Of a DNA stretch of 64,000 nucleotides, positions 1,511 through 48,340 are shown one piece after another. The stretch comes from Hexactinellida sp. DTS-2022 (lineage: Eukaryota; Porifera; Hexactinellida): contig JAPNXP010000008.1 in NCBI GenBank assembly GCA_028753945.1, positions 3,720,001-3,784,000 on the forward strand, in the 5' to 3' direction. The translations under genes were made by a program, and so were the position numbers. The first letter of the stretch is position 1. Each line of letters opens with the position of its first letter. The notes beneath the pieces are model-generated. The model ran no database searches. It saw nothing but the letters and a program-made list of their open reading frames with translations, and was not told the DNA's origin.

Positions 1511-2457
1511 TAACAATACCAGTTAAATATGCAAATTGGAATATACTCAGTTCAAGTACAGATTGTTTTAACAGTTTGGTATTTATAGGTGGTTTATCTA
1601 ATTCATTCATAATTTGGTATTGCCTATTGAGTACCTATCTTAATTCATTTCATATTATCTCCATACATATACATATCATAATCTGTTTAGCTGTAATTTT
1701 AATATAAACTTATTTCTAGACAATAATTAAAATTAGTGAAGCTTTGGAGAAAATAAATAATTAAGTTTGAAATATATGTATGTGAAACCGATAATTACTT
1801 TATCATATAAGTTATATTGAGTGTGCTGAATTCAAATTTAGTAGCCAAATCTATTTTAAATTTATAGTTGATAATTGATTAGCATGGCTATTACCAGGCT
1901 TGTTGTGGATTAAAAATCGCATCCATATTCAGGTAATTTTTTTGTGGAGATCCATGCATATTGATGCATATTTCTAAAATGTCATTTCTACAAACTATCC
2001 GAAGATTTAGGTTGCAAAATCTTCCAACTTCCAACATTAATTTGAGTGCCGATTTACATTTCAACACAATGAATAAGATCAACATTTGAATGCTAACATA
2101 TTCAATGTTAAATTCATGTTTGAAAAGTGTTAGTATTTTAACTCGACATTATACGACAATACGTATTATCCGAGATAAACATATAAGTTAGCATAGTCAA
2201 CCAATTATCAAATATCAACAGGAACTGTTTTTGTGGTTTACGGGCAGTTCATTGCAGGACACTTATTTTTCGGACAGCCAGTTCGTTACAAACATAGCTT
2301 AACACGTTAAGTTATGCTAGGAAGATACGGGCAAACAAATTTAACGGTCCCCTGGTGTACCAACAAACGAAAGTAGTAAGTACTTTAATTAATCACTGTA
2401 TCTAAATATACTAGTACCCTATATCTAATTGATTTATACTTTTTAAATTAAGTGGAC
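1511..2457. other. AT-rich intergenic region with a possible decayed MITE
   Basis: No convincing gene lies here. The tract at about 2316-2375 resembles the right half of the element at 10246-10403 (shared core GGTCCCCTGGTGT), so it may be an old, degraded copy. The 5' flank of the next gene carries no clear promoter motif. Confidence 0.4.
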
Positions 2458-3531
2458 ATGGATACAAGGAGTTGCTTGCATATATTGACGAGTAAGGAGT
2501 TCCATTCAGTGGCTATAAGATTCAATTTACTTCCATTAAAAGAGAGAATTACTTTTATTTCTAACACTCATGAACAAACGAAAACATCTGAGTTTATTAT
2601 CCCGATTAAACAAGATCGAGAAAGTCAAACCTTTTCTAGTTTTAAATCTTCTCTAACTTTTCCGCCTTCTTATTCTGAGTGGCGTAGATTCAAACAAAGA
2701 AATATACAAATTGTATTTATAACCTCACAACAGCTACATTCCAACCCGCTACTTTACCAGCAGGTTACTGACGTGCTATCGCACCTCTCTCAATTGTGTG
2801 CGGTGTTTTTCTACGGTTGTGAGGTAACCATGGTAGCGGATATACCCATTGAGCATGCAAAAGCTCGTTCAAGATTGCACCTGCAAACCAATAGAATTCA
2901 ATACTTAGCATCTGATATTATTAAATTTCTGGAGAAACATCGCCCCAAGAATGTATTTGCATTGATTGGTGTAACGGTTGAAGATTTATTTCCGGACTTT
3001 TCAGCCAATTTCGTGCTTGGTCATGCGAATTTCAAAGGAGGAGCGGGTGTGATAAGTTTCGGGAAATATGCAGATGAAATTGGAGGTGTTATGAAGGTGT
3101 CGCAATCGCGGTTATTTTGGCGGCTTACAAAAGTCCTTTTACACGAATTGACACACACCTTCGGACTGGCACACTGCTACGACTTTGCTTGTCTCATGAA
3201 TGCAAGCGGATCGATTCCAGAAGCTGAGAGCCAATCTCTATTTCTTTGTCCTTACTGTATTGCTAAACTGTCCCATATATTGAAGTTTGATTTGGTTGAA
3301 CGATTTCATGCAATGGAATTGGCTCTAATTCCAATGCAGCGATTTTCATCAGACCTTAATATAGTATGGAAGGGACATACGCACCATTTTAACTTGTATC
3401 ATCTGGGCATCGGCTCTGCCTGTAAGGAAAGAGAAAATTGTGAAAAAGAATTAACTAAAATGGACTCATTTGCGAAGGAAAAATGGGTACTTTCATTAGC
3501 TCATCTAACCGAATTGAATAAATTATTTTGA
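2458..3531 (+). CDS. AMZ2: Archaemetzincin metallopeptidase (AMZ family)
   Basis: A 357-residue single-exon protein. Residues 229-239 carry the zinc site HELTHTFGLAH. It is followed by the Cys cluster typical of archaemetzincins: C directly after the third His, C five residues on, then an LM pair and a distal CPYC. Family knowledge: these are gluzincin/metzincin-type aminopeptidases with a catalytic zinc bound by three His and a second, structural zinc bound by four Cys. The length is close to human AMZ2 (about 360 aa). A GTG codon two codons upstream is in frame, but the ATG at 2458 is the natural start. FAM50 starts only 59 bp downstream on the same strand, so the two genes may share regulatory DNA. 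Assigning AMZ2 rather than AMZ1 rests on length only. Confidence 0.9.
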   Translation: MDTRSCLHILTSKEFHSVAIRFNLLPLKERITFISNTHEQTKTSEFIIPIKQDRESQTFSSFKSSLTFPPSYSEWRRFKQRNIQIVFITSQQLHSNPLLYQQVTDVLSHLSQLCAVFFYGCEVTMVADIPIEHAKARSRLHLQTNRIQYLASDIIKFLEKHRPKNVFALIGVTVEDLFPDFSANFVLGHANFKGGAGVISFGKYADEIGGVMKVSQSRLFWRLTKVLLHELTHTFGLAHCYDFACLMNASGSIPEAESQSLFLCPYCIAKLSHILKFDLVERFHAMELALIPMQRFSSDLNIVWKGHTHHFNLYHLGIGSACKERENCEKELTKMDSFAKEKWVLSLAHLTELNKLF

Positions 3532-3590
3532 TAATATTATACTTTATATAATTGCATATAATAAACTAACGTTATCCACTAGTGTAACAA

Positions 3591-4601
3591 ATGGCTGTGT
3601 ACAAGGGGGCAGCCTCCGACGGCGGTCGAGCGGCCAGCCTGCTGAAGAAGAGGGAGAGGTCCAGACAGGAGTTCGAGTTTATGAAACAGAAAATAAGAGA
3701 GACGCAAACGCTCAAGGTAGAGGCTATAGAGAGCAAGTATGGACAGTCTAACTACGATGCGGTTGAAGATGAATTGAAGAGCTCAACAGTGGGACTAGTG
3801 ACTCTAACGGAAATGAAAGCTAAGAGAGAGAGTCTCGTGCGAGATCGAGGCTTGCAGGCTGTTTGCGACGCAGAAGCGGCGAGTGAGAAAGAACAGAGAG
3901 TGCGAGTACGAGAAGCGGAAAGAGACAAGCGGTATCCCAATGTTAACAAGTCCCTGCTATCATTCAATCTGGATGAGGACTCGTCTGAGGGGGAGAGCGA
4001 CAGCAGAGAAGCTAAGAGAGTTAGGATCTGCAAAGACCCGACTGTGGACACCAGTTTCCTTCCCGACAAGCATCGGGAGGAGGCCGACACGCTGCTGCGA
4101 GAGGAGCTGAGACAGGAGTGGCTGAGTCAGCAGGAGAAACTCAAGAGCGAGCAGATACGCGTGACGTACTCCTACTGGGACGGCTCTGGTCACCGCAGAC
4201 AGGCCCTCATGAAGAAGGGAGACAGCATAGAGCGGTTCCTGCTGGGGTGCATCGAGAGCTTGCGGGCAGAATTCCACGAGCTGCGGGTGTCCTCCGTGGA
4301 GAGTCTCATGTACATCAAGGAAGATATTATCCTGCCGCACTACAACTCGTTCTACGACTTTATCGTGGCGGGGGCGAGGGGCAAGAGCGGGCCTCTGTTC
4401 CAGTTCGACGTGCACGATGACGTCAGACTCATGAGCGACGCGTCGGTGGAGCGAGAAGAGTCGCACGCGGGCAAGGTGTGTCTGCGCAGCTGGTACGAGC
4501 GGAACAAACACATATTCCCCGCCTCTCGATGGGAGCCCTACGACCCGGAGAAGAAATGGGAGAAGTACACCAACTCGGATACAGCGAGAGCTAAGAAGTG
4601 A
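3591..4601 (+). CDS. FAM50: FAM50/XAP5 nuclear protein
   Basis: A 336-residue intronless gene. The N-terminus ([20 protein letters not shown]) and the early block [17 protein letters not shown] are hallmark FAM50 sequences. Residues about 30-190 are highly charged and helix-rich. The C-terminal XAP5 domain (about 190-330) contains [19 protein letters not shown], the [16 protein letters not shown] block, and ends with [15 protein letters not shown]. The family is nuclear and associated with spliceosome-linked functions in animals. GC content is much higher than in the preceding gene. Length matches the family (about 325-340 aa). Confidence 0.95.
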
Positions 4602-5415
4602 CTATGTTGTATGTGTGTGTTCTACTTGTTTTATTAATAAGAAAGCCTGTGTTCACCTCTGCATATAGGGGCCAGTTTAATGGCAATGGCTTATCACAGA
4701 TTATTCCAAGTCTGTTTAACTGAGGATGAGGTATTTAAATATTAAGAAGTAGTATTAATAATGATTCCATTGGAATTTTCGCTTGGCCACAGGCTCTCTC
4801 ATAAACACTGCTTTACTGGCTTTAGTTAATATCACATAGATACATGCAGGTTGCATTTTTCTATATTTCAATCAGGACATAATAAATAACATACACGACT
4901 CTAAGACGAGTGTAAATATGTAAAATTACTGACCTAAACCCTCTCAATGATGATTTAAAAAGGCGAATCTGAGACAATATAATTGTTAAATATAACTAGC
5001 AACAAATTGTCATATGATACAATATTTCTGAGAGAGATTTTTAAATGTATTAATTATATTATAAAATTCGTTAAAAACTTTAAATTTAATTAGGATCTTA
5101 TCTAGTAAATAAATCTGTGAACTCTAGTTGAAACTGCGGTCGGTTAATTATTCGAATTAACCCAATAATTATTTAAACACATTTTCTTTCCAAATTTGCC
5201 CAACTAACCGAAGATCTTTTCATTAGCTTTACTGGCATGATTATGTTCCTGAAATTTTTACCCGATTAAGCGAAGAAGACTGTATTTTAATAAACACTAA
5301 GCTATATTATATTTATAGTACATTGAATCTTAATGGAATACATAGCCCAACAATAATATTATTGAATAAATCATGTGAAAGCACAACTAATAACATTCTC
5401 TAACTATCTAAGTAA
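4602..5415. other. Intergenic, convergent 3' ends of FAM50 and GET4
   Basis: AT-rich sequence between two genes that converge. Around 5120-5286 there is weak similarity to the MITE at 56343-56516 (ACCCGATTAAGCG core, right end ..GACTGTA), suggesting a decayed copy. Nothing else is supported. Confidence 0.4.
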
Positions 5416-6345
5416 TCAGTCCAGTCCCTCGCTCTCGCTAACATTCGGTTGCTTTGTAGTGCACGCAGGCACTGCCTGTAACATCCCTCTAAATGGGTGT
5501 ATTTTAATGAAATTGAGTTTCCCTAGTATCTCCATCAGAGAGGGGTCTGTTTGTACCGCGGGTAAGTACTGTTCTGTGATGTGTTGACACCTTTCTATGG
5601 GGGAAGGGGGTTCCATGGAATCTTCTATCAACACCGCTATTATCATATGGCTGTAGTTAAGCAGAGGGTGGCCCCTAAATGGAAAGGCAGAGTCCAAACT
5701 TGGGTGGTTGGACACAAACTCTCTGAGCACCTCTGCGGCCTCCTTGACGCACCCCTCCCCTAGCATAGCCAGCACGGCTTGCGTTATAAACAGTCCTGTC
5801 TCCCCTGGGTATCCGCCCTTCAGGGAGAGGTCTAGCACCCGGAGAGCAAACTCCCCCGTCTGTCTTCCGTGTATGTAGTGTACCTTCGCTTCGTTGTACC
5901 TCTGCAGTTCCCACAGAATGTCAGCCAGCTCTTGGTGCAATGCGGTGTCCCCTGTCCGGGTGTCTCCGTTCTCCTGAGACCACTTGATACACAAACGCAG
6001 AAATTTAACAATCGGCGCGGCCTCCTTCTGTCCAACTGGGAAGTGCTTGGCTATCTCCAGAATGCGCGCAATCTCCCGTTCGCTAGCGGGTATAGAGTGA
6101 GTCCGCAGGTGCTCTGCCCACTTTATGACCAGCTCCTCTGTGCTCTCCAGCTGTCCCCGGGACAGGAACACCTGCGCCGCCTCAAAGAGGAGGTCCCCCG
6201 CCTCCTGCGGGCCCCTGCTGGAGAGGTAGCGCGCGTAGAGCGTGAGGTACAGCTGCAGAGCCTCGTAGTAGTTCTCCTCGCTCAGCAGCCGCTGCAGACG
6301 AGACAACAGACGAGGTTGGTGCGAAGACGAGTCCTTTGATGACAT
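5416..6345 (-). CDS. GET4: GET4, cytosolic tail-anchored-protein targeting factor
   Basis: A 309-residue single-exon minus-strand protein made almost wholly of alpha-helical repeats. Residues about 20-60 (YYEALQLYLTLYARYLS) match the start of the Get4 solenoid. The stretch IVKFLRLCIKWS, then ELHQELADILWELQRYNEAKVHYIHG, follows the GET4 pattern, as do HPSLD..FPF and PLLNY further on. In known systems GET4 bridges the GET5/UBL4A-BAG6 and GET3 chaperones to hand tail-anchored membrane proteins to the ER. Length fits (human about 327 aa). The ATG is at 6345-6343; the next upstream codons contain no better start. Confidence 0.9.
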   Translation of the reverse strand: MSSKDSSSHQPRLLSRLQRLLSEENYYEALQLYLTLYARYLSSRGPQEAGDLLFEAAQVFLSRGQLESTEELVIKWAEHLRTHSIPASEREIARILEIAKHFPVGQKEAAPIVKFLRLCIKWSQENGDTRTGDTALHQELADILWELQRYNEAKVHYIHGRQTGEFALRVLDLSLKGGYPGETGLFITQAVLAMLGEGCVKEAAEVLREFVSNHPSLDSAFPFRGHPLLNYSHMIIAVLIEDSMEPPSPIERCQHITEQYLPAVQTDPSLMEILGKLNFIKIHPFRGMLQAVPACTTKQPNVSESEGLD

Positions 6346-6465
6346 TATACTTGTTTAGTTACAAATAGTTATCAGTATAAGCCGTGTAGTGTAGTATTAT
6401 TATTCGTTTTGATATTTGAATTTATTTTCTCTTAAATTAACTGGTGCTAAACGCTATACTATATG

Positions 6466-6644
6466 CAGTATATGCTAGATGCCGGATAAGCACACCGGTT
6501 ATAAGAACATATCAAATATAAGCACACTATGTTGGAAAACGGTTGCCATATACGCTATATAATTTATGTCGGTTATAACAACATGCCGGTTATAAGCACA
6601 TTAAGTGCAGTTCCCGACGATGTGCTTATAACCAGCATCCACTG
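6466..6644. mobile_element. pogo/Tigger-like MITE, family with GGTTATAAGCAC ends
   Basis: An approximately 179-bp unit that begins CAG at 6466 and ends ACTG at 6644 followed by TA. Ends are imperfectly inverted: left GATGCCGGATAAGCACA, right TGCTTATAACCAGCATC. Internal repeats of GGTTATAAGCA/AACA are present. A related unit is at 50966-51165. It has no coding capacity and lies in the 5' flank of GET4. Confidence 0.65.
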
Positions 6645-6723
6645 TACTATGAAACTATTCAAGGGAAAATGTTGATATTTCTACGAATAAGTTTAAATTT
6701 AATAAGTCTCGTTAAGGAACTTT

Positions 6724-7806
6724 AATAAGATTATGCGTGACCTTCGATATATAAGGCCTGAGTGCTGGTTTGAACCATGGATTACTTAAAGTGCATTGAA
6801 AAATGGAGAATTGTTCTTTATCCCAATAATTAGCAATGATAGAGCTGAAAAGTGTATTATAACTATATAGGAATATGGTACCCAGGTATACATAGCACTC
6901 TCCAGAATTGTGATATGTCATCATCTGATGACGTAATGGTAATTTTGGTTGCGAATTATCTTGTTTTTCTAGCATACTTTTAACATAGTTAAACGCGTTA
7001 TAAATGTTCAAAATTGGAACATGGTTATACCCATAACTAGTTGAAAAAAATATATCGAAATTATAAATGGAATGTTGACACATTCCTCGGTTGCCATGGA
7101 AATGTATATTTCCTAAAATGTGTCATAACTCAAAAACTATGAATGTTATGTAAACTAGGCTGGTACTGATCTGTCCGGAATAGGTAACTTCCTATTCATT
7201 GATAATACATTTTATATGCCTAACTTCAATAACTTTTGAGATCATGACATAATTAACACTTAATTCATTATTAGGTAATGACTCACTATCTCAAAGATGA
7301 TTGAAGTTAGGCATATAAAATGTATTATCAATGAATAGGAAGTTACCTATTCCGGACAGATCAGTACCAGCCTAGTTTACATAACATTCATAGTTTTTGA
7401 GTTATGACACATTTTAGGAAATATACATTTCCATGGCAACCGAGGAATGTGTCAACATTCCATTTATAATTTCGATATATTTTTTTCAACTAGTTATGGG
7501 TATAACCATGTTCCAATTTTGAACATTTATAACGCGTTTAACTATGTTAAAAGTATGCTAGAAAAACAAGATAATTCGCAACCAAAATTACCATTACGTC
7601 ATCAGATGATGACATATCACAATTCTGGAGAGTGCTATGTATACCTGGGTACCATATTCCTATATAGTTATAATACACTTTTCAGCTCTATCATTGCTAA
7701 TTATTGGGATAAAGAACAATTCTCCATTTTTCAATGCACTTTAAGTAATCCATGGTACACAAATTTTCGCTTAGCACTCAGGCCTTATATATCGAAGGTC
7801 ACGGAT
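6724..7806. repeat. Long inverted repeat (two arms of about 0.5 kb, 69-bp spacer)
   Basis: The left arm (about 6724-7230) is the near-perfect reverse complement of the right arm (7300 to about 7806), with a 69-bp centre at 7231-7299. I compared the arms over their whole length. The only clear differences are at the outer ends: a block near 6770 versus 7757-7777 differs by about 9 bp. Because of the symmetry each arm shows the same open frame of about 124 codons on opposite strands. That frame has no recognisable domain and I do not call it a gene. A fold-back transposon or a recent palindromic duplication would both fit. The outer ends AAGATTATGC/GGATTATGCT are not clear target duplications. 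Confidence 0.85.
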
Positions 7807-7871
7807 TATGCTATTAATCCATAATATTAAAATAAAAATAAAAATATTGAAGAAGGTTGTGTGTATTTAAA

Positions 7872-8999
7872 TTATACATAAGGTTCATAAGTATACTTGA
7901 TCATTTCTTTAATATTTCGCCTTAACAATTGATGGTTATTCCTCTTCGTTGCGCAACAGCGATTCAAAGAGAAGAAAAGTGTGAAGTAAGCAACGGACAT
8001 TAGTATCTGATGGATGTAGGACAATGCTAACGCTGACCTGTAAAAGTACATTTTTATATTATCAAATGAGTCAACTATTCCTGTTCCAAACTGAATCCTC
8101 TCTAAATAACCCAAACTTATAAAGCTGAAATAACAGCTGTTATGTAATTCTGTTGTTATGATGAAAAGAAATGAGTTTATTGATATTTGGAGAATTAATA
8201 CTAATTCTAGGATTATAGTGAAAACGGTAGAAATCTTGAAGTGCCTAGCTGAATTTCTGAATCTTCGGTACTCGAGTTTGGTGGAAGGGCAATTATAATT
8301 CAGATATTGAATCTGTGCTGCTTCCCGCCTAGATTTAAGTAATTTGTAAAATCTCCTCGCGTAGATTAAATATCTAACGAGATCAAACCAAAACCACAAC
8401 ATCTGAATACCCACGAATATAACGTAAGTGTAAAATGTGTTAGAGAGTACTAGCATTATGATAGATCTTGCAAAGATGTAAATTGTCCATTTTTTGATGC
8501 TTTTACCATATGGGTGTGACAGAATTGCACAGCGTATTACCTCCAAAGCGCAACAAATCGTTGGTAGCAGCGAGAAGCTGATCACCTCTACGATTCGTGT
8601 AAGTAAATACAAACTCCAGCTATTAAACCTAGTCAAAACAAGCAAATTTTTACTATGAGAAATTTGACAGTGTTCTGAGATGTTGATTGACAATGGTCTG
8701 TGCCTATAGGAACTAATATTGTCCACTGCAAGCCATCCAGCAGTCCCAGTTACATTAATAGCGATCTCAATTGAGAGTATCAATAAGATGAACCGGTTCA
8801 CAAGTCTCTTTAATTTAAGAGAATGGATACGCTCTTCATTGGAAGGTCTGAAAGGGATATTAACTTTAACGATAGTTATCTGTTTGCACAACTGATGGTG
8901 ATTCTGGCAGTATTTATAAAATAGCAACAAAGAAAAGAACAAAAACACTATTGGTATATAGGGATCAGCTCTCTCAAAGATTGAGTATACGATAAGCAT
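7872..8999 (-). CDS. Orphan multi-pass membrane protein (about seven TM)
   Basis: A 375-residue single-exon minus-strand protein (ATG at 8999-8997). Hydrophobic segments lie near residues 12-28, 68-88, 120-150, 165-200, 250-280 and 335-355, with basic loops between them (for example RRFYKLLKSRREA after the middle helices). There is no cleavable signal peptide. The extracellular-looking loop around residue 100 has an Asn-Ile-Ser sequon and a Cys. I do not recognise the family. An orphan GPCR-like receptor is the simplest reading from topology alone. AT-rich codon use matches the other membrane gene at 1-1510, but no clear sequence kinship is visible by eye. Confidence 0.68.
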   Translation of the reverse strand: MLIVYSIFERADPYIPIVFLFFSLLLFYKYCQNHHQLCKQITIVKVNIPFRPSNEERIHSLKLKRLVNRFILLILSIEIAINVTGTAGWLAVDNISSYRHRPLSINISEHCQISHSKNLLVLTRFNSWSLYLLTRIVEVISFSLLPTICCALEVIRCAILSHPYGKSIKKWTIYIFARSIIMLVLSNTFYTYVIFVGIQMLWFWFDLVRYLIYARRFYKLLKSRREAAQIQYLNYNCPSTKLEYRRFRNSARHFKISTVFTIILELVLILQISINSFLFIITTELHNSCYFSFISLGYLERIQFGTGIVDSFDNIKMYFYRSALALSYIHQILMSVAYFTLFFSLNRCCATKRNNHQLLRRNIKEMIKYTYEPYV

Positions 9000-9566
9000 T
9001 TTAGTTTGATATTACGTACTTGAATTCACCGTCCACAATTATTCTACTTAAATACTACAGCCCCTTCCATTTTAAAAAATGATTAAAAATATTACTTAAA
9101 ATGATTAATGGTTATTTTCCCTATTATTTTAACCTTAATTAACACACATTACGCTATATTATTTGTAGACTCTATCTCATATTATCCTGCAGAACAAATG
9201 AATTATTGTAGCTAGGTAAACAAGCTATTGATTACACCCAATTATACTTTTCTATTAACCTTTCTTATTCTATCTGAATACGTAATTTTACTAATTTAGT
9301 GGAGAGTGTACATGAACTCGTTAGCCAAACATTTCTACAGAGGGGTTTGCCTTTATGTAAATATCCTAAGGGAAGGATTAGTATGTTTGCTGTTACAAAG
9401 ATATTTTGTATACTAAATGTGACTTGTTAATAAGCAAACATATTGAAAGTTGAAACTAAGGCAACTAGAAATTAAATTTGAAATCTCATTCTACCATAAA
9501 TTGAATGAAATAACCACTTGCCACTCTTTACGTTAAATAGAGTCTACAATACAAATCCCTAAATAA
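9000..9566. other. AT-rich intergenic spacer
   Basis: The region lies between the start of the orphan membrane gene and the 3' end of PIGT. It is AT-rich without repeats or open frames I can support. Confidence 0.4.
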
Positions 9567-37527: not shown

Positions 37528-38721
37528 CTAATCTTGACTATCATCGCTATCATCGCTAGATTCTTCTGAATACTCACTGCTGCCGCTGCTGCTCTCTAGC
37601 TTGATAAACCTCCTCCTCTCTAGGACAAAGCTCCTGAGTAGATTTTTAACGGCTGATTCTCTCCGAGACACGTTAGAACGCTCCTTTAATGGAAATATTT
37701 TTCTCCCCACTAACGTTTCTGATTTTGGCAGTTCAATACTTTCTATACTATTACTATATGAAATTGTCGGTATGGGTTCCATAGCTCTATTCATATTGCG
37801 CTGCGAGAACTGCCCAGTATTGCCGTCTAATTCAGGAGATGATGCCATTTCTGCTGGTGCAAATATTTCGTATATTATACTAGAGTCGTCTTTGTAGCTG
37901 CCTTGCTCCCTACTGAGCTCACTGGTTGTATCGGGCTCGGAATCCTGATAGCAGTTTGTACAGAATGAAGGGTATTCGTACAGGGCTTGGTTAGAGATAT
38001 CTGGTTCTATAGGTATATCAGACTGTGGCGTAGACTGCTGCATATTCGGTGATTCGTTTAATTCATTTAATAACGGTTGAGATTTGTCAAGAGTTTCAGT
38101 TATCCTTGGTTTTACATGATGGATCGGGACGGGGTAGAATTTGTCATCTTTTTGAAACACATCGCTTATCTCCGTCGTTTGCAACTTTAACAATTTATTC
38201 CTAGTTATTCGCTTTTTAATTTTCATTTGCTTTTTCTGTTCACACCAGCTATCCTTGAAATAGTTTATGTTTGAATAAAACCTAATTCTCTCCTGAGGTT
38301 CACAATCACCTTGGGCAGATGGAATGTCTCCGAAAATCGCTTTGAAAGAAGGCGGAGGTTCACATTTATCGTACTGGTCTCTTAGCGACTGCGGAAGCGT
38401 GTGTCTCATGAACACAGGTTTATACTGAGAAGGCTTCTTATGTTTATTACAGATAACAACTGAAGTTTGTGAGTGCGCTTTAGCATCCAGGCTTTCAATC
38501 TCTAGGTTCATAGAATCAATTCTATTCTTGATACTGTTGTATCTCTTGTTCAAGCGGGAAATCTCTTCTAGCAGTCCCTCGATCAGCTGACCGCCTCTCA
38601 GACTGAGGTTGCTCAGCTGTAGGATTATCTCGCTAAGCGCGCGCCCCGCATTCTGCTCTAGGCTATCTCCCGTCTGTCCCCTGCATACGCAGACAGGCTC
38701 GATTGTAGTAAACAACGGCAT
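37528..38721 (-). CDS. WASF: WAVE/SCAR (WASF) family homologue with a reduced C-terminus
   Basis: A 397-residue single-exon minus-strand gene. The N-terminal WAVE homology domain is clear: MPLFTTIEP, IILQLSNLS, the helix SLRDQYDKCEPPPSF, then RIRFYSNINYFKDSW and a basic stretch with KKQMKIKKRI (about 170-185). The middle is low-complexity. The C-terminus has an amphipathic helix (ESAVKNLLRSFVLERRRF) and the acidic end SEESSDDSDDSQD. WAVE proteins sit in the WAVE regulatory complex and activate Arp2/3 through WH2, central and acidic-Trp motifs. Here I see no proline-rich region, no clear WH2 and no Trp in the acidic tail. Either the gene is divergent or a 3' exon was missed. The start codon lies 16 bp from the transposon. 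Confidence 0.8.
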   Translation of the reverse strand: MPLFTTIEPVCVCRGQTGDSLEQNAGRALSEIILQLSNLSLRGGQLIEGLLEEISRLNKRYNSIKNRIDSMNLEIESLDAKAHSQTSVVICNKHKKPSQYKPVFMRHTLPQSLRDQYDKCEPPPSFKAIFGDIPSAQGDCEPQERIRFYSNINYFKDSWCEQKKQMKIKKRITRNKLLKLQTTEISDVFQKDDKFYPVPIHHVKPRITETLDKSQPLLNELNESPNMQQSTPQSDIPIEPDISNQALYEYPSFCTNCYQDSEPDTTSELSREQGSYKDDSSIIYEIFAPAEMASSPELDGNTGQFSQRNMNRAMEPIPTISYSNSIESIELPKSETLVGRKIFPLKERSNVSRRESAVKNLLRSFVLERRRFIKLESSSGSSEYSEESSDDSDDSQD

Positions 38722-38728
38722 TGCTATA

Positions 38729-38737
38729 CTCGGTATA
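38729..38737. repeat. 9-bp target-site duplication, left copy
   Basis: CTCGGTATA, identical to 48332-48340 on the far side of the transposon. Confidence 0.93.
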
Positions 38738-40312
38738 GGGTCTGACTGAATGGTGGAAAATGGTGGAAAATGGTGGAAAACATCCGAGAGTGGTGGAAAA
38801 TGGTGGAAAATGGTGGAAAACTACTTGACTGAATGGTGGAAAATGGTGGAAAATGGTGGAATTTCTGAATTTTCGTCGAAATGACTGAATGGTGGAAAGT
38901 GGTGGAATTTCTAAAAATCGACTGAAAGGTGGAAAATGGTGGAAAATGGTGGAATTCGACTGAATGGTGGAAAATGGTGGAAAATGACTGAATGGTGGAT
39001 AATGGTGGAAAACGACTGAATGGTGGAAAATGGTGGAAAACGGTGGAAAACGCCTGAATGGTGGAAAAACGGGGGCTGACTGAATAGTGGAATCTAGTGG
39101 AATCTTTGACTGAATAGTGGAATCGAGTGGAATTTGATTAAATTGTTAAACACTACGTATATGCTATAAGCTACGTGTGTATCATATTACGTTAATTTTC
39201 GCCCATGTAAAATTGTTTGCAATGATTGAAGTGACACAATAGGATTTATTAGTTAGGCTTTGTTACCATGTTATTTAGACACATCTTATTACATTATTTA
39301 TCAACAATTCCTTATCAAATCCAGTTGGTATTCATTGGGCAGTTCAATAGAGATGATTAGTAAGAATACTAATATAGTATCATATTGTCACGAGTGTGAA
39401 GTTAGCAGCGAATTCCAGCAGCGAAATTTGAGCACAACTTCGCCCTTAATAAACTACTCATTTCCCATCCGATTCATCTGAAATTTGGCAGCCCCCTTCA
39501 GTCAGTATGGTGCTTTTCAATTATTCAATTGTTAACACATATCACACCTACTCTTCCCACAATGACGTTGCAAAATTTCTAATACAAAATTCCCATAGGC
39601 AATATTGAGCACAACTTCGCACTTAATAAACTACTCATTTCCCATCCGATTCATCTGAAATTTGGCAGCCCCCTTCAGTCAGTATGGTGCTTTTCAATTA
39701 TTCAATTGTTAACACATATCACACCTACTCTTCCCACAATGACGTTGCAAAATTTCTAATACAAAATTCCCATAGGCAATATTGAGCACAACTTCGCACT
39801 TAATAAACTACTCATTTCCCATCCGATTCATCTGAAATTTGGCAGCCCCCTTCAGTCAGTATGGTGCTTTTCAATTATTCAATTGTTAACACATATCACA
39901 CCTACTCTTCCCACAATGACGTTGCAAAATTTCTAATACAAAATTCCCATAGGCAATATTGAGCACAACTTCGCCCTTAATAAAGTACTCATTTCCCATC
40001 CAATTCATCTGAAATTTGGCAGCCCCCTTCAGTCAGTATGGTGCTTTTCAATTATTCAATTGTTTACACATATCACACCTACTATTCCCACAATGACGTT
40101 GCAAAATTTCTAATACAAAATTCCCATAGGCAATATTGAGCACAACTTCGCCCTTAATAAAGTACTCATTTCCCATCCAATTCATCTGAAATTTGGCAGC
40201 CCCCTTCAGTCAGTATGGTGCTTTTCAATTATTCAATTGTTAACACATATCACACCTCCTCTTCCCACAATGACGTTGCAAAATTTCTAATACAAAATTC
40301 CCATAGGCAATT
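38738..40312. repeat. Left terminal inverted repeat of the MULE
   Basis: Outer block 38738 to about 39134: runs of GGTGGAAAAT interspersed with GACTGAAT. Middle segment about 39135-39427. Inner block 39428-40312: exactly five 177-bp monomers (starts 39428, 39605, 39782, 39959, 40136). The first monomers are almost identical; copies 4 and 5 share AAGTACTC where copies 1-3 have AACTACTC. A 161-bp insertion (39231-39391) interrupts the middle segment relative to the right end. Confidence 0.92.
39231..39391. mobile_element. Small insertion inside the left TIR
   Basis: A 161-bp stretch starting GTGACACAATA and ending CATATTGTCAC is absent from the corresponding place of the right TIR (about 47810-47860), which instead has about 30 bp of different sequence. 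The inverted ends GTGACA.../...TGTCAC suggest a short transposon insertion. Boundaries are approximate. Confidence 0.45.
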
Positions 40313-40480
40313 TTCTGGGTAACAGTTACAACAATATAGTATATCACTTTATGGTGTTTTCCTTCATTTTCATAACTAATTATTATTACTTGAATAATTT
40401 ATCCTTACCCTGGTTTGTATAAGTTTGCTTCTATCACAATTATTTATTCATTATCATTATACGTACAAACATATCCTTTT

Positions 40481-40559
40481 ACAAGGTGTTGAGGAATTGA
40501 TGTCCTATTCTAGGAAAACCTATTAATCTGATTGGACATCAAATTCTTAACACCTTGTA
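40481..40559. repeat. 79-bp hairpin just inside the left TIR
   Basis: Ends ACAAGGTGTTGAGGAATTGA and its near-complement (CAAATTCTTAACACCTTGT) pair over about 25 bp around a loop of about 28 bp. It lies about 190 bp before the transposase start codon, so it may be part of the element's promoter or 5' leader. Confidence 0.7.
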
Positions 40560-40752
40560 CTAACTAATCACCACTTGTTCGTTATGAATTGTTGTGCTTC
40601 AATCATTATAGATTGGCTCATCTATAGTGATTGAATAAAGTATAAATATGACATACTATGCCCTTACTATATTATTTTAGTCATCATTTTATCTTTTCAT
40701 AATTCGTACAGCTTGTTTTTCTCCTTATTTACACTCACATCAATTTTACAAA

Positions 40753-43700
40753 ATGGAGGCAAACTCTGGTCCCTCTTCTTCAGGTAACGATTATTTAAAT
40801 CTACTTTTAGTTATATATTCTTGATATTATTTACCTCTAATCTTTGCAAATACTAGTAAAAATACTAGTCTCGTTATTTTAGTACAGTATAAGCTCTCTC
40901 ATTCGAACCTCGTTAATAAACGTATCTTATTTATTATTTGTAGACGGTATATTCATTCTACTTTGTATATATACTCACGGCTAAGGATCCCCTAAAAAAT
41001 ATTTCTAAATCGATTATTTCTAAGTAATATGATAAGTCTGCTATCAATATAACCGAGAGCTCGTATCTAGCTATCTTACTTAGGCTACATTGACACCCGA
41101 AACCATGTTGCTAAAAAATGACCCCTTGTTTCATTAAACAATTTTTTTTAAAAATTAGCCGCCCGGTGTTCACTCTAGCATCTGTAAAACATATATTTTA
41201 AGGGTGCTCTGTACTGATATTTTGACACCCGACGACCTAATGTTTTTATTGCGTTTTTGGATAGTACTAATATATCTAAGATATCCCTGAAAATATTAGA
41301 GTTCTACTATGTATATATCCTTAGTTATGAACTAGACAATGTCAATATAGGCCTAATCCATACTAGCCAAATATTTACAAAAAAATTTTATGTTAGTTTT
41401 TAGCGCGAAACATGTCAATTATAAAATATACCTGAGTCAATACTCAATGTTTTAAATCGAACCGAAATATGCTTTTTCTTTAATCTACTCTATGTTATTG
41501 TCATTTTTGTGAAATTGGTCAAAAAAAAACCACTATTTTTCATTAAAAGTATACTAATTCAATTTTTTTGTATTATATTGCCAAAACTGCCCGCTTTTAA
41601 AACATGCGCCTACATATACTGAGCATTTTAAAAAAAAGTTTGACTTTCTAGAATAAAAATTCTCTTTTTTACATCCATATGCCCAAATGGTCTTTTTTTA
41701 CACCTTCATAATTAGCATTTAATTAATTTGTGTCGAAGTGGCTGAGTCCAGAATATGAAAGTGCGAGGAAAAGGAGTTCCTAAACTGCATAAAATAGATA
41801 ATGTCATTTGAAATTGAATTAGACTATTTTTAGAAATTTAGAGCTAAGCTCTATCTCATTTGGATCAGAAGTTGGATTTTTGTCAGCTTTTTAACATATT
41901 GCCACTTTGACACCACCATATTTGGGCATTTGAAATCAGAACACATCATTCGAATTATAATATAATCCCAAAAGTTTATCCAATGAGTAAGAAATAGTAT
42001 CATGATGTGACTAGAATTTTAGAGCTAGTCTCTGCTGTCCAGAGATCAATAGTTACAAAATTTGCTTCGTCATCAAAATTGGGCACATCAAATTACCATA
42101 TATGGTCATGTTAAAAAGTGTGACACCTAGAGTCCTAAAATGTATTATAAACGTATAGAAAGTCAGGTATTTACAGTATTTTCTAATGCCTATGATCATT
42201 TTATCTCAAAGCGTTTCTGAAATATCAACAGGTGTGAAATGTCAGATTTTTTGCCCCCTTCTGTGGCCCAAAAGTCCATAACTTATCGAATAATGATTGG
42301 ATCGTGTTGTGTAACGTCTCATTTTATGCACAAATGCTATTTCCATATTTGTATTACCAATTTGGTGTTTTATATAATACTTTATTTGATATTTGAGGGC
42401 CTTGAGGTGTGAAAATATGACAAAACAGACAAAACCATAGTCATAAATTGGTCATAACTCATGATATATTATTGTAAAAGTGTTGAAAACAAATGCTACG
42501 CATAGATAAGAAGCTGGCGCATTTTTATGAAGAATAACAGAATTATTCTGCTGTCCAATTTCCCACAGTAATATATGATCACCGGGTACTTGCATACCCT
42601 TCATATTCTTTTATGCCCCTAATTTCCTAATTTTTGACATATTCCTGAACTTTTTGACGTGAACCTGTATATTTTGACCTGTAGATTCCGAAATTTTTAA
42701 TTTTGGGAACAATATATGGCAGTGTAGAATTTTATCACCTCTTTTGATGTAGAAATTCGGAAAAATTCGTGGGCCGAAGCCTTAGAATGCTTATAAAACC
42801 AAAAATAATAATCAGAAAGTCAAAAAATTTCTCTGGGGTAACACATGATGCATCCTCAGACCCTTGAACTAGAATTGAAAATTTTTTCTTCTAACATTTT
42901 ATAACGATTGTTTAGTGCACGACTGCGTTTTATGATTATTTTGAAAAAATGCCCTTTAGCATCGTTTCTTCTGCAAAAATAAATAAAATAAAAATTATTA
43001 CTGAGAGGAAATAGTCTCATAATAATATGTTCAAAAATTCAAAAAGATTCAACAATTTTTGAAAAAATGTCATGCCCATATAAGGAAGTCGACGTCTTAT
43101 TTTATTAAAAAACACCATCTTGATTGAAAATTAAGAAAAAAAAAATCATAGAAGTCAATCTCTATCTCATCAAGAGTATTCCTAGTAGTAAATTATGCAA
43201 TTCTGAGATTCACCGTGAACGCCCGAATATCAATACAGATTACCCTTAACTATGTACTATCTAACTATGTTTCAAACTGATGTACATTTAATTGGTTTTA
43301 ATTTAGATTCAGAACAATTAATCAAATCACCCATTGTATATTGATAATATTGACGACATATCAAATGCATAAGTTTCCTGAAAATATTTTTATTGTGAAG
43401 AGTTGTTTTAGTGTTTGAATATAACAACTATGAATTGTCTCGAGCGTGACAGAGAGCTTTTAGCGCTATTGTCTATGCAACAATTTCGAAATCATGAATA
43501 ATTTTGAAATATGATGATTTTCCACTAATTCCATCTAGTCACTGCTGTAATAATTATTGAAACTTGAAAGTATACATGAATTTACAAAAACTCAAGACGG
43601 GATGGGGGTATGCTTCTTCTGGTACATATGTGAAAAATATTCCATGTACGTAATAGAATGTTGATGTTAATTACTCCTTAATTCACCATTTATTCATTTT

Positions 43701-46700
43701 TAATAGATGATGAAGCTATTTCATCCTCAAATATTCACCTTTCCGAAAGATTCTTAAGTGCGCTTTTCAAATTAGGCGATAATATTCAAGAGATTGAATC
43801 ACAATTAAAGCTTTGCAATTGGCGAAAACATGATTCTATCTGGGGAAAACTGTCAAAATTATTATTCCAGAGAAATCGCAAGCAGCTTCGTCAAAAGATC
43901 ATGCTTTTGTGGCACAAGAACCATTACGGAGTTAGATCACGATTTGAATCTAGCTTTTCGCTGCATAAACATGATTCTACAAAGGTTAGCTTTCTAGTCA
44001 GTATCGAAATTAAAAATTTGCATACTAGTGGATTTAAGTTTCCTAAAAATTCAGATAGGTTCGAGCTAGATAACATGGACGAATTTTCAATAATTGGACA
44101 CGAAACTGTCAGATGCTCTGTTGATTATCCTACTAATTCATTAACTTGTTCAAAAGAAGAGTTAGCGATAATTCCTGATGCATTTGGTAATCAAACTTTG
44201 CATGAAAATTTATTTACTGAAACAGCAGTTGGAGCAAGTTATGTAATACAGCCTCGTATTCTAAGAAAAGAGAATTTGGAGGGTTACTCGACAAATCTCA
44301 AACAAATCGTTTTAAGTTTTGAAGAATGGGAAAAAATTAGACCACAATTCGGTGGTAAAAACTTGCACTCCGAGTGGACTAACATTATTAGCAAAAAAAT
44401 TGAATTTTTCAACCCATTATGTGTTTTGAAATTTTCCTACCACAGAATTAATCTAAAATCAAATCGACGAGATTGCCACTTTGTGTTGGCTGAGGGAAAG
44501 TGTAAATTCGAAAACTGTATTACATTCAGACTCTGGATTAAATCGGAACCAGAAGGTATGAATGATGTCATAGTTAACTTCCTTACATATGGCTCTATTT
44601 CAAACCAGCACAATGATAACGAAACAGCGTTTAGCCGTCACCTATCTGGAGAAATTAGACAGGAAGTAAGCACCGAATTATCCAAGTCTTCCCCTATTAA
44701 TTGTTATTACGAACAATTCAATGAATCCAAAAATTTATTTGCCGCTAAACATGGAAATTTCAACAATTTACATTCGCAAGCTCTCTTACGGAAAATAAAA
44801 GCTGAGCATTTATCTAAAGAAAGGTATGATTGTGATATGTGGTTGGATGTTGTGGGTACCAAGAGAACATATGACGCTGCTATAAATGGAAATGTAATTC
44901 ATGGTTATATTCAAACATTAGTGAGAGAACCAGTAATAATTCATATGTTTAGTGAGGAGCAAATACTTATTCTAAAACACTTTGATTTAAGGAAAATATC
45001 CTTACATCTAGATGCAACTGGTTCAGTCGTTCGGAAGATTGACAAACACCAAAAAGCTTTTCTTTACTACGCATTAACCATTAGACACCCAGATGCTAAA
45101 ACCAGCCCTGTACCCCTCGCAGAAATGTTGAGTAGCGATCATACAAATATTGAGATATCACATTTTTTGAATAAATGGCTATATTGTGTTAAATCTGTAA
45201 TACATAAAAACTTTGCTCCAAATCATGTAGAAATAGATTTCAGTTGGGCCATGATTCATAGCACTTGCCAAAGTTTCAATCATCAGAATCTGGAAGGCTA
45301 CCTTAACGTTTGCTGGGAAATGAATAAACGTTCTTGTTCTGTGATCTATCCAAAAACAGTAATCCATATATGCTCCGCTCATATTATGCATCGATTTAGC
45401 CACAAACTGAACTATACATTGAGGGCAGATAAAGAAACAAAAAGAAGAATACTATTTGTAATGGCTCGTCTTATTAACTCTGTGTCATTAAAAGAAATTG
45501 ATTCATTATTTTTCGCATTATGTATTTCTGTTGCTGCCAAAAAATTATATCCTGAAGTTCAACAGTATATCAGTGTATTGGAAAAGGCGATTAATTATGA
45601 TGAAGATCAGATAGATATGGAAATAGAATATCTTGCAGAATTAGATGAGGAACTTCCTAACGAATTAGGAGATAGTCTAACCTATAAGAGTAAATCACCC
45701 TTTGGAAGACATTTCGAAAATATCCTCACTACATGCCAGGCTTTGGTTAATCAGTTTGAAATTAAACATAGAGGATCGACTAAACTCCAAGATAATTTTT
45801 TCTATCTCCCTAAATTTCCTACATTTTTAACAACTCATTATATGCCGATTTGCCCCTTATGGACTGGTTTTATTCTTGCCATTTTTTTGCCTGAACAAAG
45901 CACGACTTGTAGATGTTCAAATGCAATAGTGGAAAATTGGATGAAAATAGTCAAACACAACATCTTAACTAAGGAAGTAAAACTTAGACCAGCGGACTTC
46001 ATCAGAAAAATCCGAGAAGGTATTCATGGAAGAGTAAATGCTTTTGATTTTGCATTTACTACAATAAGTGCCAAAATTCAATGCAGAAAGAGACGATCTT
46101 GCAAAAAAAGTGATTCTCATGCAGAAGAAATTTGGTGTAGGAGAAAAAAAGCAAAAAAAAGTTACTTCAATCCAAGTAAATTATCTGAATCTGCATTATT
46201 AGAGCCTTCCAATAGAAAGTATCGATCAACAATTAATGACAAATCCACACATCCTGGGAAAGTTATCCAGCTTTTGCCAAACAAAGATGCAGTTGTTTCA
46301 AGTGAAGACAGAAGTCCATCAGTGAAGGAAGAAGATGGAATAACATATTATCCTCAGGGGGAATTTATTCCAGTTGACTCAAAATGGCAAAAGGATAAAT
46401 GCAAAATGTTGAAGATGACATTTATTATTGGTATTCTATCGGAAGATCAATCAACAGAGAAGAAATTAGATATTAGGCGATTGGCACCTTCTAAAGAAAA
46501 GAGGATTTCACCCGATGGAAACTGCTTGTTCAGTTCCCTGAGCTATGTGATTACAGGAACAGATTGTTTTCATAAAGAAATCAGAGAAAATCTGCTTGAA
46601 AATATGAAAGGGCAATATAAGGATATTTGCACAAATTATTGTTGCTCACATTATGAATTATTACCAGAATACAGATGCCACTCAGTGGATGATTATATCA

Positions 46701-46972
46701 CAAAAAGTAAAATACACTTACTTGGATCATGGGGTACGGATATGGAAATATTTCTCGCAGCACAAATATTAACAACCGACATATTTGTCTATAGAGACAC
46801 TCTTCAATGTTGGAATAAGTTTTCCGGGTATGGATTCAACAACAAAAAGGATGTACATAGATTGACCTCTAAAAGGATTTATCTGAGGTTACATCATGAC
46901 CATTTTCAACCCGTACTCAAAGTTGATAAAGTAGAAAATTGTAGAATTTTCGAAGATTTGCAGTGCTTATGA
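40753..46972 (+). CDS. MULE transposase fused to an OTU cysteine protease domain (two exons)
   Basis: Exon 1 is 40753-40783 (31 nt, MEANSGPSSS) with donor GGTAAC. Exon 2 is 43707-46972, acceptor TTTTTAATAG, phase 1; 1,098 aa. The frame is open for 64 codons before the first internal ATG at 43901, which supports the splice. The central domain has LHLDATG (Asp446), VEIDFSW (Asp521), the C..H motif HICSAHIMHRF and a CRC..AIVENW segment, as in MULE DDE transposases with a C2H-type zinc site. A lysine-rich linker (KKSYFNPSKL) leads to the OTU domain at about 940-1090: SPDGNCLFSSLSY with Asp947 and Cys950, and LHHDHFQPV with the catalytic His1076. OTU proteases cleave ubiquitin chains. The 2.9-kb intron could also hide regulatory DNA. 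Confidence 0.88.
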
Positions 46973-47100
46973 TGAAAAAGAACTGAAACCTAGCACCAAG
47001 AATGTTCCAATGATTTAGTTTAGAAATCTCTAAAGATTAGTGTAACATGTTTTCTATTTAGTATACTATTCCTTACTGTATTACTAACAATAATTATATA

Positions 47101-48331
47101 ATTTTGCAACGTCATTGTGGGAAGAGTAGGTGTGATATGTGTTAACAATTGAATAATTGAAAAGCACCATACTGACTGAAGGGGGCTGCCAAATTTCAGA
47201 TGAATCGGATGGGAAATGAGTAGTTTATTAAGGGCGAAGTTGTGCTCAATATTGCCTATGGGGAATTTGTATTAGAAATTTTGCAACGTCATTGTGGGAA
47301 GAGTAGGTGTGATATGTGTTAACAATTGAATAATTGAAAAGCACCATACTGACTGAAGGGGGCTGCCAAATTTCAGATGAATTGGATGGGAAATGAGTAC
47401 TTTATTAAGGGCGAAGTTGTGCTCAATATTGCCTATGGGAATTTTGTATTAGAAATTTTGCAACGTCATTGTGGGAAGAGTAGGTGTGATATGTGTAAAC
47501 AATTGAATAATTGAAAAGCACCATACTGACTGAAGGGGGCTGCCAAATTTCAGATGAATCGGATGGGAAATGAGTAGTTTATTAAGTGCGAAGTTGTGCT
47601 CAATATTGCCTATGGGAATTTTGTATTAGAAATTTTGCAACGTCATTGTGGGAAGAGTAGGTGTGATATGTGTTAACAATTGAATAATTGAAAAGCACCA
47701 TACTGACTGAAGGGGGCTGCCAAATTTCAGATGAATCGGATGGGAAATGAGTAGTTTATTAAGGGCGAAGTTGTGCTCAAATTTCGCTGCTGGAATTCGC
47801 TGCTAACTTCACACTCGTCATATTGTCCCACTTCATGCACAACACTAGTTCAATCATTGCAAACAATTTTACATGGGCGAAAATTAACGTAATATGATAC
47901 ACACGTAGCTTATAGCATATACGTAGTGTTTAACAATTTAATCAAATTCCACTCGATTCCACTATTCAGTCAGCCCCCGTTTTTCCACCATTTTCCACCA
48001 TTTTCCACCATTCAGTCGTTTTCCACCATTTTCCACCATTCAGTCGTTTTCCACCATTTTCCACCATTATCCACCATTCAGTCGTTTTCCACCATTTTCC
48101 ACCATTCAGTCGTTTTCCACCATTTTCCACCATTTTCCACCTTTCAGTCGATTTTTAGAAATTCCACCACTTTCCACCATTCAGTCATTTCGACGAAAAT
48201 TCAGAAATTCCACCATTTTCCACCATTTTCCACCATTTTCCACCATTCAGTCAAGTAGTTTTCCACCATTTTCCACCACTCTCGGATGTTTTCCACCATT
48301 TTCCACCATTTTCCACCATTCAGTCAGACCC
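47101..48331. repeat. Right terminal inverted repeat of the MULE
   Basis: The inverse of the left TIR. The inner array 47101-47781 holds 3.85 monomers of 177 bp (starts 47101, 47278, 47455, 47632). A unique segment to about 47947 follows, then the 10-bp satellite read as TTTTCCACCA with CATTCAGTC spacers to 48331. The frame open across the satellite (47926-48258) is repeat, not a gene. Confidence 0.92.
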
Positions 48332-48340
48332 CTCGGTATA
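48332..48340. repeat. 9-bp target-site duplication, right copy
   Basis: CTCGGTATA, identical to 38729-38737. Confidence 0.93.

What the first reader, a model, noticed from the sequence alone, without database searches (positions are those of the whole stretch)
38738..48331. Apparently intact 9.6-kb MULE with a perfect 9-bp target duplication
Seen: flanking CTCGGTATA on both sides, inverted ends, an unbroken 1,098-aa gene, and terminal repeats that remain nearly identical. Known: Mutator-like elements make 8-10-bp (usually 9-bp) duplications. Inference: recent, perhaps ongoing, transposition in this animal. Autonomous animal MULEs of this size are rarely described.
Basis: partly seen in the sequence, partly recalled or inferred. 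Interest (0 to 1): 0.85.

Follow-up and report, generated by a model that had tools for sequence, protein, structure and literature searches.

The report
Three transposons nested in one another
What looked like one large jumping gene is three different young ones inserted into each other, just in front of an animal cell-skeleton gene, and the middle one still carries an unbroken gene that looks like its own moving enzyme.

Summary
The sequence facts largely hold: CTCGGTATA flanks 38738-48331, the ends are inverted, and the predicted 1,098-aa frame is open (one predicted intron). The reading as one 9.6-kb MULE does not hold. Layer 1 is a 1.16-kb gene-less foldback element (38738-39389 plus 47828-48331); CTCGGTATA is its duplication. 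Layer 2 (39390-47818) carries the gene and has its own ends (ACGAGTGTG...) and its own 9-bp duplication, CATATTGTC, inside the foldback. Layer 3 (41202-43245) sits in that gene's predicted intron with a TTAA duplication. Decisive: 36 of 39 other foldback copies have the junction uninterrupted; a 98-99%-identical layer-2 copy elsewhere has another 9-bp duplication, no foldback arms and no layer 3; layer 3 has at least 39 other copies at 99%. Layer 2 encodes a DDE/CxxH-type protein with a C-terminal OTU protease domain; its ends and duplications are MULE-like, but Pfam's MULE domain does not match. The foldback's probable partner is a separate PHD-OTU-MULE gene (994 aa, intact in two copies). 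The stack begins 7 nt upstream of a WAVE/SCAR-like start codon. Recent movement is well supported; present activity was not tested.

The parts
38729..38737 (.). Left copy of outer target-site duplication CTCGGTATA (layer 1), 7 nt upstream of the ATG of the neighbouring gene
38738..39389 (+). Left part of layer 1, foldback element: terminus GGGTCTGACTGAATGG, 10-bp minisatellite arm (about 38749-39050), a second terminus-like motif GGGGCTGACTGAATAGTGG at 39072, and part of the unique centre
39381..39389 (.). Left copy of inner target-site duplication CATATTGTC (lies within layer 1); the word occurs only here and at 47819 in the window
39390..47818 (+). Layer 2: MULE-like OTU transposon, 8,429 nt as found, ends ACGAGTGTGAAGTTAGCAGCG.../...CACACTCGT
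39428..40311 (+). Left arm array of layer 2: 5.0 copies of a 177-bp repeat
40753..40783 (+). Predicted coding exon 1 (MEANSGPSSS) with donor GTAACG; identical in the second copy
41198..41201 (.). TTAA duplication, left copy (layer 3)
41202..43245 (+). Layer 3: 2,044-bp element with short imperfect inverted ends and no open frame of 100 aa from ATG, GTG or TTG, in the predicted intron; absent from the second layer-2 copy
43246..43249 (.). TTAA duplication, right copy (layer 3)
43707..46972 (+). Predicted exon 2; invariant D, D, CxxH, E of a DDE-type transposase at residues 444, 519, 564-567, 751 of the 1,096-aa open frame 43682-46972
46511..46849 (+). OTU-like cysteine protease domain (Pfam PF02338, E 7e-8), invariant D945, C948 and, just past the domain match, H1074
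47100..47780 (-). Right arm array of layer 2: 3.8 copies of the 177-bp repeat, inverted
47819..47827 (.). Right copy of inner target-site duplication CATATTGTC
47828..48331 (-). Right part of layer 1 (foldback arm, inverted)
48332..48340 (.). Right copy of outer target-site duplication CTCGGTATA
37528..38721 (-). Neighbouring gene, 397-aa WAVE/SCAR-like protein (PDB chains of WASF1, E 9e-14); context, not part of the transposons

Best explanation
Three cut-and-paste type elements inserted in succession. First, a gene-less foldback MULE (layer 1) inserted 7 nt upstream of a WAVE-like gene, duplicating CTCGGTATA; it was presumably moved in trans by a PHD-OTU-MULE transposase that is still intact elsewhere in this genome. 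Second, a self-coding OTU transposon (layer 2) inserted into the unique centre of that foldback, duplicating CATATTGTC. Third, a TTAA-specific element without a gene (layer 3) inserted into the intron of layer 2's gene. Shown: the boundaries, the three duplications, the empty site of layer 2 in other foldback copies, the copy of layer 2 without layers 1 and 3, the open frame. Inferred: that the layer-2 protein is an active transposase acting through its D, D, E residues on the ACGAGTGTG termini, that OTU assists, which transposase moved layer 1, and that the intron is spliced with layer 3 in it.
For: Separate ends and duplications for layers 1 and 2. A query made of the two outer flanks hits across the empty junction in 38 of 39 fetched foldback copies (two of them, L021 and L030, with only 11 nt on the left side; L040 has none); the 28-nt junction is present with at most 4 edits in 36 of 39 (not in L021, L030, L040), 16 identical and absent from the window; L010 matches the joined arms 375/375. 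Layer 2 occurs on C12 at 98.3-99.0% without layer-1 arms and with duplication TTAGTTTCC. Outer family: 26 of 39 copies have perfect duplications (17 of 9 bp, 9 of 8 bp; 13 none), against 1 in 9 x 39 shifted controls. Inner family: of 6 elements read with both ends, 4 have a perfect 9-bp and 1 a perfect 8-bp duplication, 1 has none. Layer 3: TTAA on both sides, absent from the C12 copy; 40 of 846 candidates were scored, all 40 (this one included) at 99-100% over 2,041-2,044 of 2,044 bases. Coding constraint on the layer-2 gene: against 5 diverged open-frame homologues and 2 gene pieces, pN 0.27-0.46 while pS is 0.69-0.81.
Against: No transcript, protein or population data. The order of insertion follows from nesting only. 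13 of 39 foldback copies have no perfect duplication and 1 of 6 inner elements has none. The C12 copy of layer 2 has a broken frame (one stop and one 1-nt deletion), so no second intact copy of this exact family was seen among the 52 DNA matches listed (40 of 119 candidates scored). Pfam's MULE model does not match the layer-2 protein.
Confidence: 0.95

Rival explanations
1. One reading: one autonomous 9.6-kb MULE with complex terminal inverted repeats and a 9-bp duplication.
For: Perfect outer duplication, inverted ends, one large open frame between them.
Against: Second perfect 9-bp duplication at the inner boundaries; other foldback copies without the inner part (36 of 39); another inner copy without the outer arms.
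Confidence: 0.02
2. Composite transposition: layer 2 entered a foldback elsewhere and the whole 7.5-9.6-kb composite then moved to this site as cargo between the foldback ends.
For: The outer duplication is perfect; foldback-type elements carrying cargo are known (Ssk-FB4, PMC8277862, passages; the Ising TE of flies between foldback transposons, PMC6431247, passages).
Against: Of the five other gene-bearing loci compared with the element, none has layer 2 between foldback arms (L050/L051 has the reverse nest); the remaining matches were not examined for this. In-place nesting needs no extra step.
Confidence: 0.08
3. Layer 2 is not a MULE but a member of another or an undescribed DDE superfamily that also makes 9-bp duplications.
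For: PF10551 matches 0 of 6 proteins of its family; hhalign against six canonical MULE proteins of the same genome scores 16.9, within ten shuffled controls (12.1-17.5) and near the reversed profile (15.8); the full-length comparison was no better; D2-to-E spacing is 232 residues against 131 in those MULEs.
Against: 9-bp duplication, long repeat-rich TIRs, D-D-E with CxxH between the second D and E, and an N-x-x-x-E-N-W block that by eye recalls the E-A-W-H block of three of the six MULEs. Profiles were thin (6 sequences each, Neff about 2.3-2.9).
Confidence: 0.25
4. Assembly artefact joining unrelated repeats.
For: Repeat-rich region with tandem arrays, which assemblers can misjoin.
Against: Three independent boundary pairs each with a fitting duplication and a single-copy flank on the gene side.
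Confidence: 0.02

Closest known systems
Tm1, Mutator/Foldback elements of root-knot nematodes (PMC3169594; abstract and passages seen)
   Same: Composite tandem-repeat TIRs, 8-10-bp duplications (45 of 53 there), gene-less copies and coding ones; the paper reports a second, unrelated element nested in one copy.
   Different: Tm1 transposase is 496 aa; 13-15-bp repeats; the term OTU has 0 occurrences in that paper (listing).
Muta1 of Aedes aegypti (PMC5225508; passages seen)
   Same: Animal MULE with subterminal tandem repeats, classed there as a type-2 foldback; two-exon gene.
   Different: 504-aa transposase; described as active; layer 2 has a predicted 1,098-aa protein with OTU.
Rehavkus group (PMC6446971; Table 1 and passages seen)
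   Same: 9-bp duplication, TIRs, minisatellite near one end, PHD finger in the transposase; compare the outer family's coding relative (PHD weak, OTU, MULE).
   Different: Minisatellites here lie in both arms; no Rehavkus sequence could be compared; OTU has 0 occurrences in that paper's text.
Drosophila FB4 / FB-NOF (PMC8277862 passages; the tandem-repeat arms and NOF recalled)
   Same: Long inverted arms, 9-10-bp duplication, gene-less copies moved by another element.
   Different: FB4's transposase is called unknown there; here an intact candidate partner exists in the genome.
OTU-carrying transposons: Ginger1 and some Helitrons/Helentrons (PMC2836005, PMC6431247; passages seen)
   Same: C-terminal OTU domain on a transposase (Ginger1).
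   Different: Ginger1 has a Gypsy-integrase-like domain; PMC2836005 names Ulp1, not OTU, for Mutator elements.

Membership tests
MULE superfamily (layer 2) | 8-11-bp, usually 9-bp, target duplication | tested here: met
   4 perfect 9-bp and 1 perfect 8-bp of 6 elements with both ends; 1 none
MULE superfamily (layer 2) | Long terminal inverted repeats (>100 bp) | tested here: met
   719-nt arms, 99% complementary
MULE superfamily (layer 2) | DDE triad with CxxH between second D and E | tested here: met
   Invariant in 6 of 6 diverged proteins: D444, D519, C564-H567, E751; same order in the MULEs; the motif's general link to MULEs, and its presence in other superfamilies, are recalled
MULE superfamily (layer 2) | Recognisable MULE transposase domain (PF10551) or profile similarity to MULEs | tested here: not met
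   0 of 6 proteins; hhalign score within shuffles; hence called MULE-like, not filed as a MULE
MULE superfamily (outer family, layer 1, via its coding relative) | PF10551 above the curated cut-off in a coding copy with the same kind of ends | tested here: met
   994-aa ORF, PF10551 31.1 bits against cut-off 27.6; ends GGGGCTGACTGAATAGTGG; the decayed relative L056 stays below the cut-off (19.4 bits)
MULE superfamily (outer family, layer 1, via its coding relative) | 9-bp target duplication | tested here: met
   17 of 39 perfect 9-bp, 9 of 39 perfect 8-bp, 13 of 39 none perfect
Foldback (FB) elements | Long inverted arms built of short tandem repeats, copies able to fold back | tested here: met
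   10-bp unit arrays in both arms; inverted arms about 20 nt apart in the top-scoring copies
Rehavkus | PHD finger in the transposase | tested here: inconclusive
   PHD 14.3 bits in the 994-aa protein and 16.9 in L056, below the cut-off of 24
Rehavkus | Sequence kinship to Rehavkus transposases | not testable with these tools
   No Rehavkus sequence was at hand in the collections used
piggyBac-type (layer 3) | TTAA target duplication | tested here: met
   TTAA at both ends, single in the C12 copy
piggyBac-type (layer 3) | piggyBac transposase, own or in trans | not tested
   Layer 3 has no open frame of 100 aa or more from an ATG, GTG or TTG start; other TTAA-specific families are not excluded

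The most novel reading that the evidence does not exclude
The layer-2 proteins (DDE/CxxH core plus C-terminal OTU protease, 9-bp duplications, 177-bp tandem-repeat arms) form a superfamily-level lineage of animal transposases that current MULE models do not recognise, heavily amplified in this genome beside a separate PHD-OTU-MULE lineage, so that two unrelated 9-bp-duplicating systems each recruited an OTU protease.
Probability: 0.2. Interest if true: 0.6.

Novelty: new variant of a known kind. Interest (0 to 1): 0.42.

Why it matters
It shows how a nest can pass for one large element: the outermost perfect duplication and the gene inside need not belong together, and whole-genome empty-site tests resolve it. 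It also gives a foldback family with an intact candidate transposase in the same genome, where the transposase of the comparable FB4 of flies is described as unknown, and two OTU-protease transposon lineages in which a role for deubiquitination in transposition could be tested.

Tried and rejected
A viral-contig scan for the protein found no relative. PDB sequence search gave one weak OTU match for the single sequence (E 0.031); the family profile gave 7 matches at E up to 1, five named OTU domain-containing proteins and two named RNA polymerases, one of these the best at E 1.7e-4, all in the OTU region. Profile comparison with six canonical MULEs of the same genome was not significant. The host species was not settled: Xenoturbella bocki was considered for its size and 18 scaffolds, but the published assembly has 72 Mbp in those scaffolds and 43% GC (PMC11521371, passages), against 112.4 Mb in 18 contigs here and 39.7% GC in the window. 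The 392-nt arm comparison was discarded because the alignment was gapped wrongly. A 2A-like motif (GDVEANPGP) just before the intron was found in one related copy (L055, overlapping L008) and not in the window copy, which reads YKMEANSGP, so no 2A function is claimed. The left end of the second intact partner copy (C17) was not found in the 121 bases fetched.
Full report
The observation. CTCGGTATA occurs twice in the window, at 38729-38737 and 48332-48340. The sequence between begins GGGTCTGACTGAATGG and ends with its reverse complement; 73 terminal nt are perfectly complementary. So the letters are as described, except that the arms as a whole are not nearly identical (92.6% with 180 gap letters).

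Why it is not one element. A BLAST of the 9,594-nt stretch against a second copy of its gene on contig C12 (L048+L049) matched only from base 652 to 9081, skipped 2465-4508, and left the outer 651 and 513 bases unmatched among the hits of 60 nt or more that were printed. At those limits both loci show ACGAGTGTGAAGTTAGCAGCG...CACACTCGT ends flanked by 9-bp duplications of their own: CATATTGTC here, TTAGTTTCC on C12. The search with outer-arm DNA returned 202 matches, with 40 of 168 first-look candidates scored. I fetched the 39 scored places outside the window; most are short near-palindromes. A query made of the two outer flanks without the inner part hits across the junction in 38 of 39 (L010: 375 of 375 identical; L021 and L030 with only 11 nt on the left; L040 none), and the 28-nt junction itself is found with at most 4 edits in 36 of 39, 16 of them identical, while the window lacks it. 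That is the empty site, with CATATTGTC or a near variant once.

Layer 1. The outer element is 1,156 nt without layer 2: arms with 10-bp minisatellites around a unique centre. Its termini (GGGTCTGACTGAATGGTGGAAAA, up to 1 mismatch) occur 88 times in the genome against 0 for the reversed control pattern. Perfect duplications flank 26 of the 39 copies (17 of 9 bp, 9 of 8 bp; 13 have none perfect); shifting the right flank by nine offsets gave 1 hit in 9 x 39. Coding relatives with such ends exist: L056 (9-bp duplication TTTCCGTGA, decayed frames with sub-threshold PHD, OTU and MULE matches), and an element in L050 with an intact 994-aa frame that passes Pfam cut-offs for OTU (35.3 bits) and MULE (31.1 bits) and shows a sub-threshold PHD finger. 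A second place with an open 994-aa frame, listed at 100% identity, lies on C17. The window's arms align to L056's at 85-91% in the four best hits and 69-72% in the others listed, and to the L050 element's at about 64-78%. That this protein moves layer 1 is an inference.

Layer 2. Of six elements of this group read with both ends, window, C12, L057 and L061 have perfect 9-bp and L055 a perfect 8-bp duplication; L060 has none. The arms hold 5.0 and 3.8 copies of a 177-bp repeat. Over 540 nt the two arms of one copy differ at 4 (window) and 7 (C12) places, arms of different copies at 8-11; this slight excess fits exchange between the arms of a copy, so arm identity is not a safe clock. Between-copy identity is 98.3% over 1,813 nt and 99.0% over 4,358 nt. 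The C12 frame is broken by one stop and one 1-nt deletion. Among the 52 DNA matches listed for the gene (40 of 119 candidates scored) only these two are full-length.

The protein. Pfam finds only OTU (E 7e-8). A tblastn search of the genome had 1,159 first-look candidates, 45 scored, 54 match rows at 35-63% identity apart from the window and C12 copies; 12 places besides the window's show frames of 1,028-1,349 aa with no stop inside the match. I fetched five, open in one frame as far as fetched (946-1,192 aa). In the alignment of six, D444, D519, C564xxH567 and E751 are invariant, as are the OTU D945, C948 and H1074; OTU is found in 6 of 6 and PF10551 in 0 of 6. Nonsynonymous difference (pN 0.27-0.46) is well below the near-saturated synonymous difference (pS 0.69-0.81) in 7 comparisons with the window gene, so the coding function has been kept over long times. 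Compared with six PF10551 proteins of the same genome (L071-L076), hhalign gives 16.9 against 12.1-17.5 for ten column shuffles and 15.8 for the reversed profile; the full-length comparison was also empty. So layer 2 works like a MULE (9-bp duplication, long TIRs, DDE/CxxH) but kinship by transposase sequence was tested and not shown. An unaligned AlphaFold model was useless (pLDDT 34).

Layer 3. Bases 41202-43245 (2,044 nt) are flanked by TTAA and absent from C12, which has TTAA once. The ends GGGTGCTCTGTACTGATATT / GGGTAATCTGTATTGATATT are imperfect inverted repeats. The search scored 40 of 846 candidates; all 40, this one included, are 99-100% identical over 2,041-2,044 of 2,044 bases. It is a young, abundant TTAA element lying in layer 2's intron.

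Setting. The left duplication ends 7 nt before the ATG of a 397-aa frame on the minus strand that matches PDB chains named Wiskott-Aldrich syndrome protein family member 1 (E 9e-14). A second, divergent match lies on C18 (32% over residues 5-113). A 96-base query at this edge had one match, itself. The stack therefore sits in the 5' leader or promoter of a WAVE/SCAR-like gene; any effect is untested.

Known work. Foldback MULEs with tandem-repeat arms and 9-bp duplications are described (Tm1, PMC3169594; Muta1, PMC5225508; FB4, PMC8277862; passages read). Rehavkus has a PHD finger, 9-bp duplication and a minisatellite (PMC6446971, Table 1 and passages). OTU domains are reported for Ginger1 and some Helitrons or Helentrons, and Ulp1 rather than OTU for Mutator elements (PMC2836005 and PMC6431247, passages). 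Searches that combined OTU with Mutator or MuDR terms brought up no paper whose listing pointed to an OTU-bearing MULE; of the papers listed there I opened five (PMC3169594, PMC2836005, PMC5225508, PMC6446971, PMC6431247), the library holds only open-licence papers, and Repbase could not be searched. I recall OTU-bearing MuDR-type proteins from invertebrate genomes, without a source here.

Verdict. The finding is real sequence, misread in structure: a three-layer nest of young transposons. The nest itself is ordinary in kind; the interest lies in the two OTU transposon lineages and in the foldback family with an intact candidate partner.

Noticed in passing
L050 5277-9747 (G000:C1, about 7975276-7979746): Reciprocal nest: an outer-type element with an intact 994-aa PHD-OTU-MULE frame lies inside a decayed copy of the layer-2 gene; a 7-bp word GTCAGTT flanks it, with 5 extra bases on the left.
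   Followed up: partly
window 6722-7817: A 1.1-kb palindrome (94.6% self-complementary) with mirrored open frames, perhaps another foldback element.
   Followed up: no
L055 813-836 (also L008): 2A-like motif GDVEANPGP just before the predicted intron donor of a related OTU transposon; only at this locus among the 66 sequences held at the time.
   Followed up: partly
whole genome G000: PF10551 gave 150 scored matches, all above the cut-off, from 961 candidates: canonical MULEs are abundant in this 112-Mb genome.
   Followed up: no
G000:C4:4593960-4602320 (L058, L065, L059): An 8.3-kb stretch between outer-type ends with flanks TTATTTAG/TTATTGAG (7 of 8 alike), perhaps another foldback with cargo.
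   Followed up: partly
G000:C18:1785080-1785427: Second WAVE-like match, 32% to the gene beside the nest.
   Followed up: no
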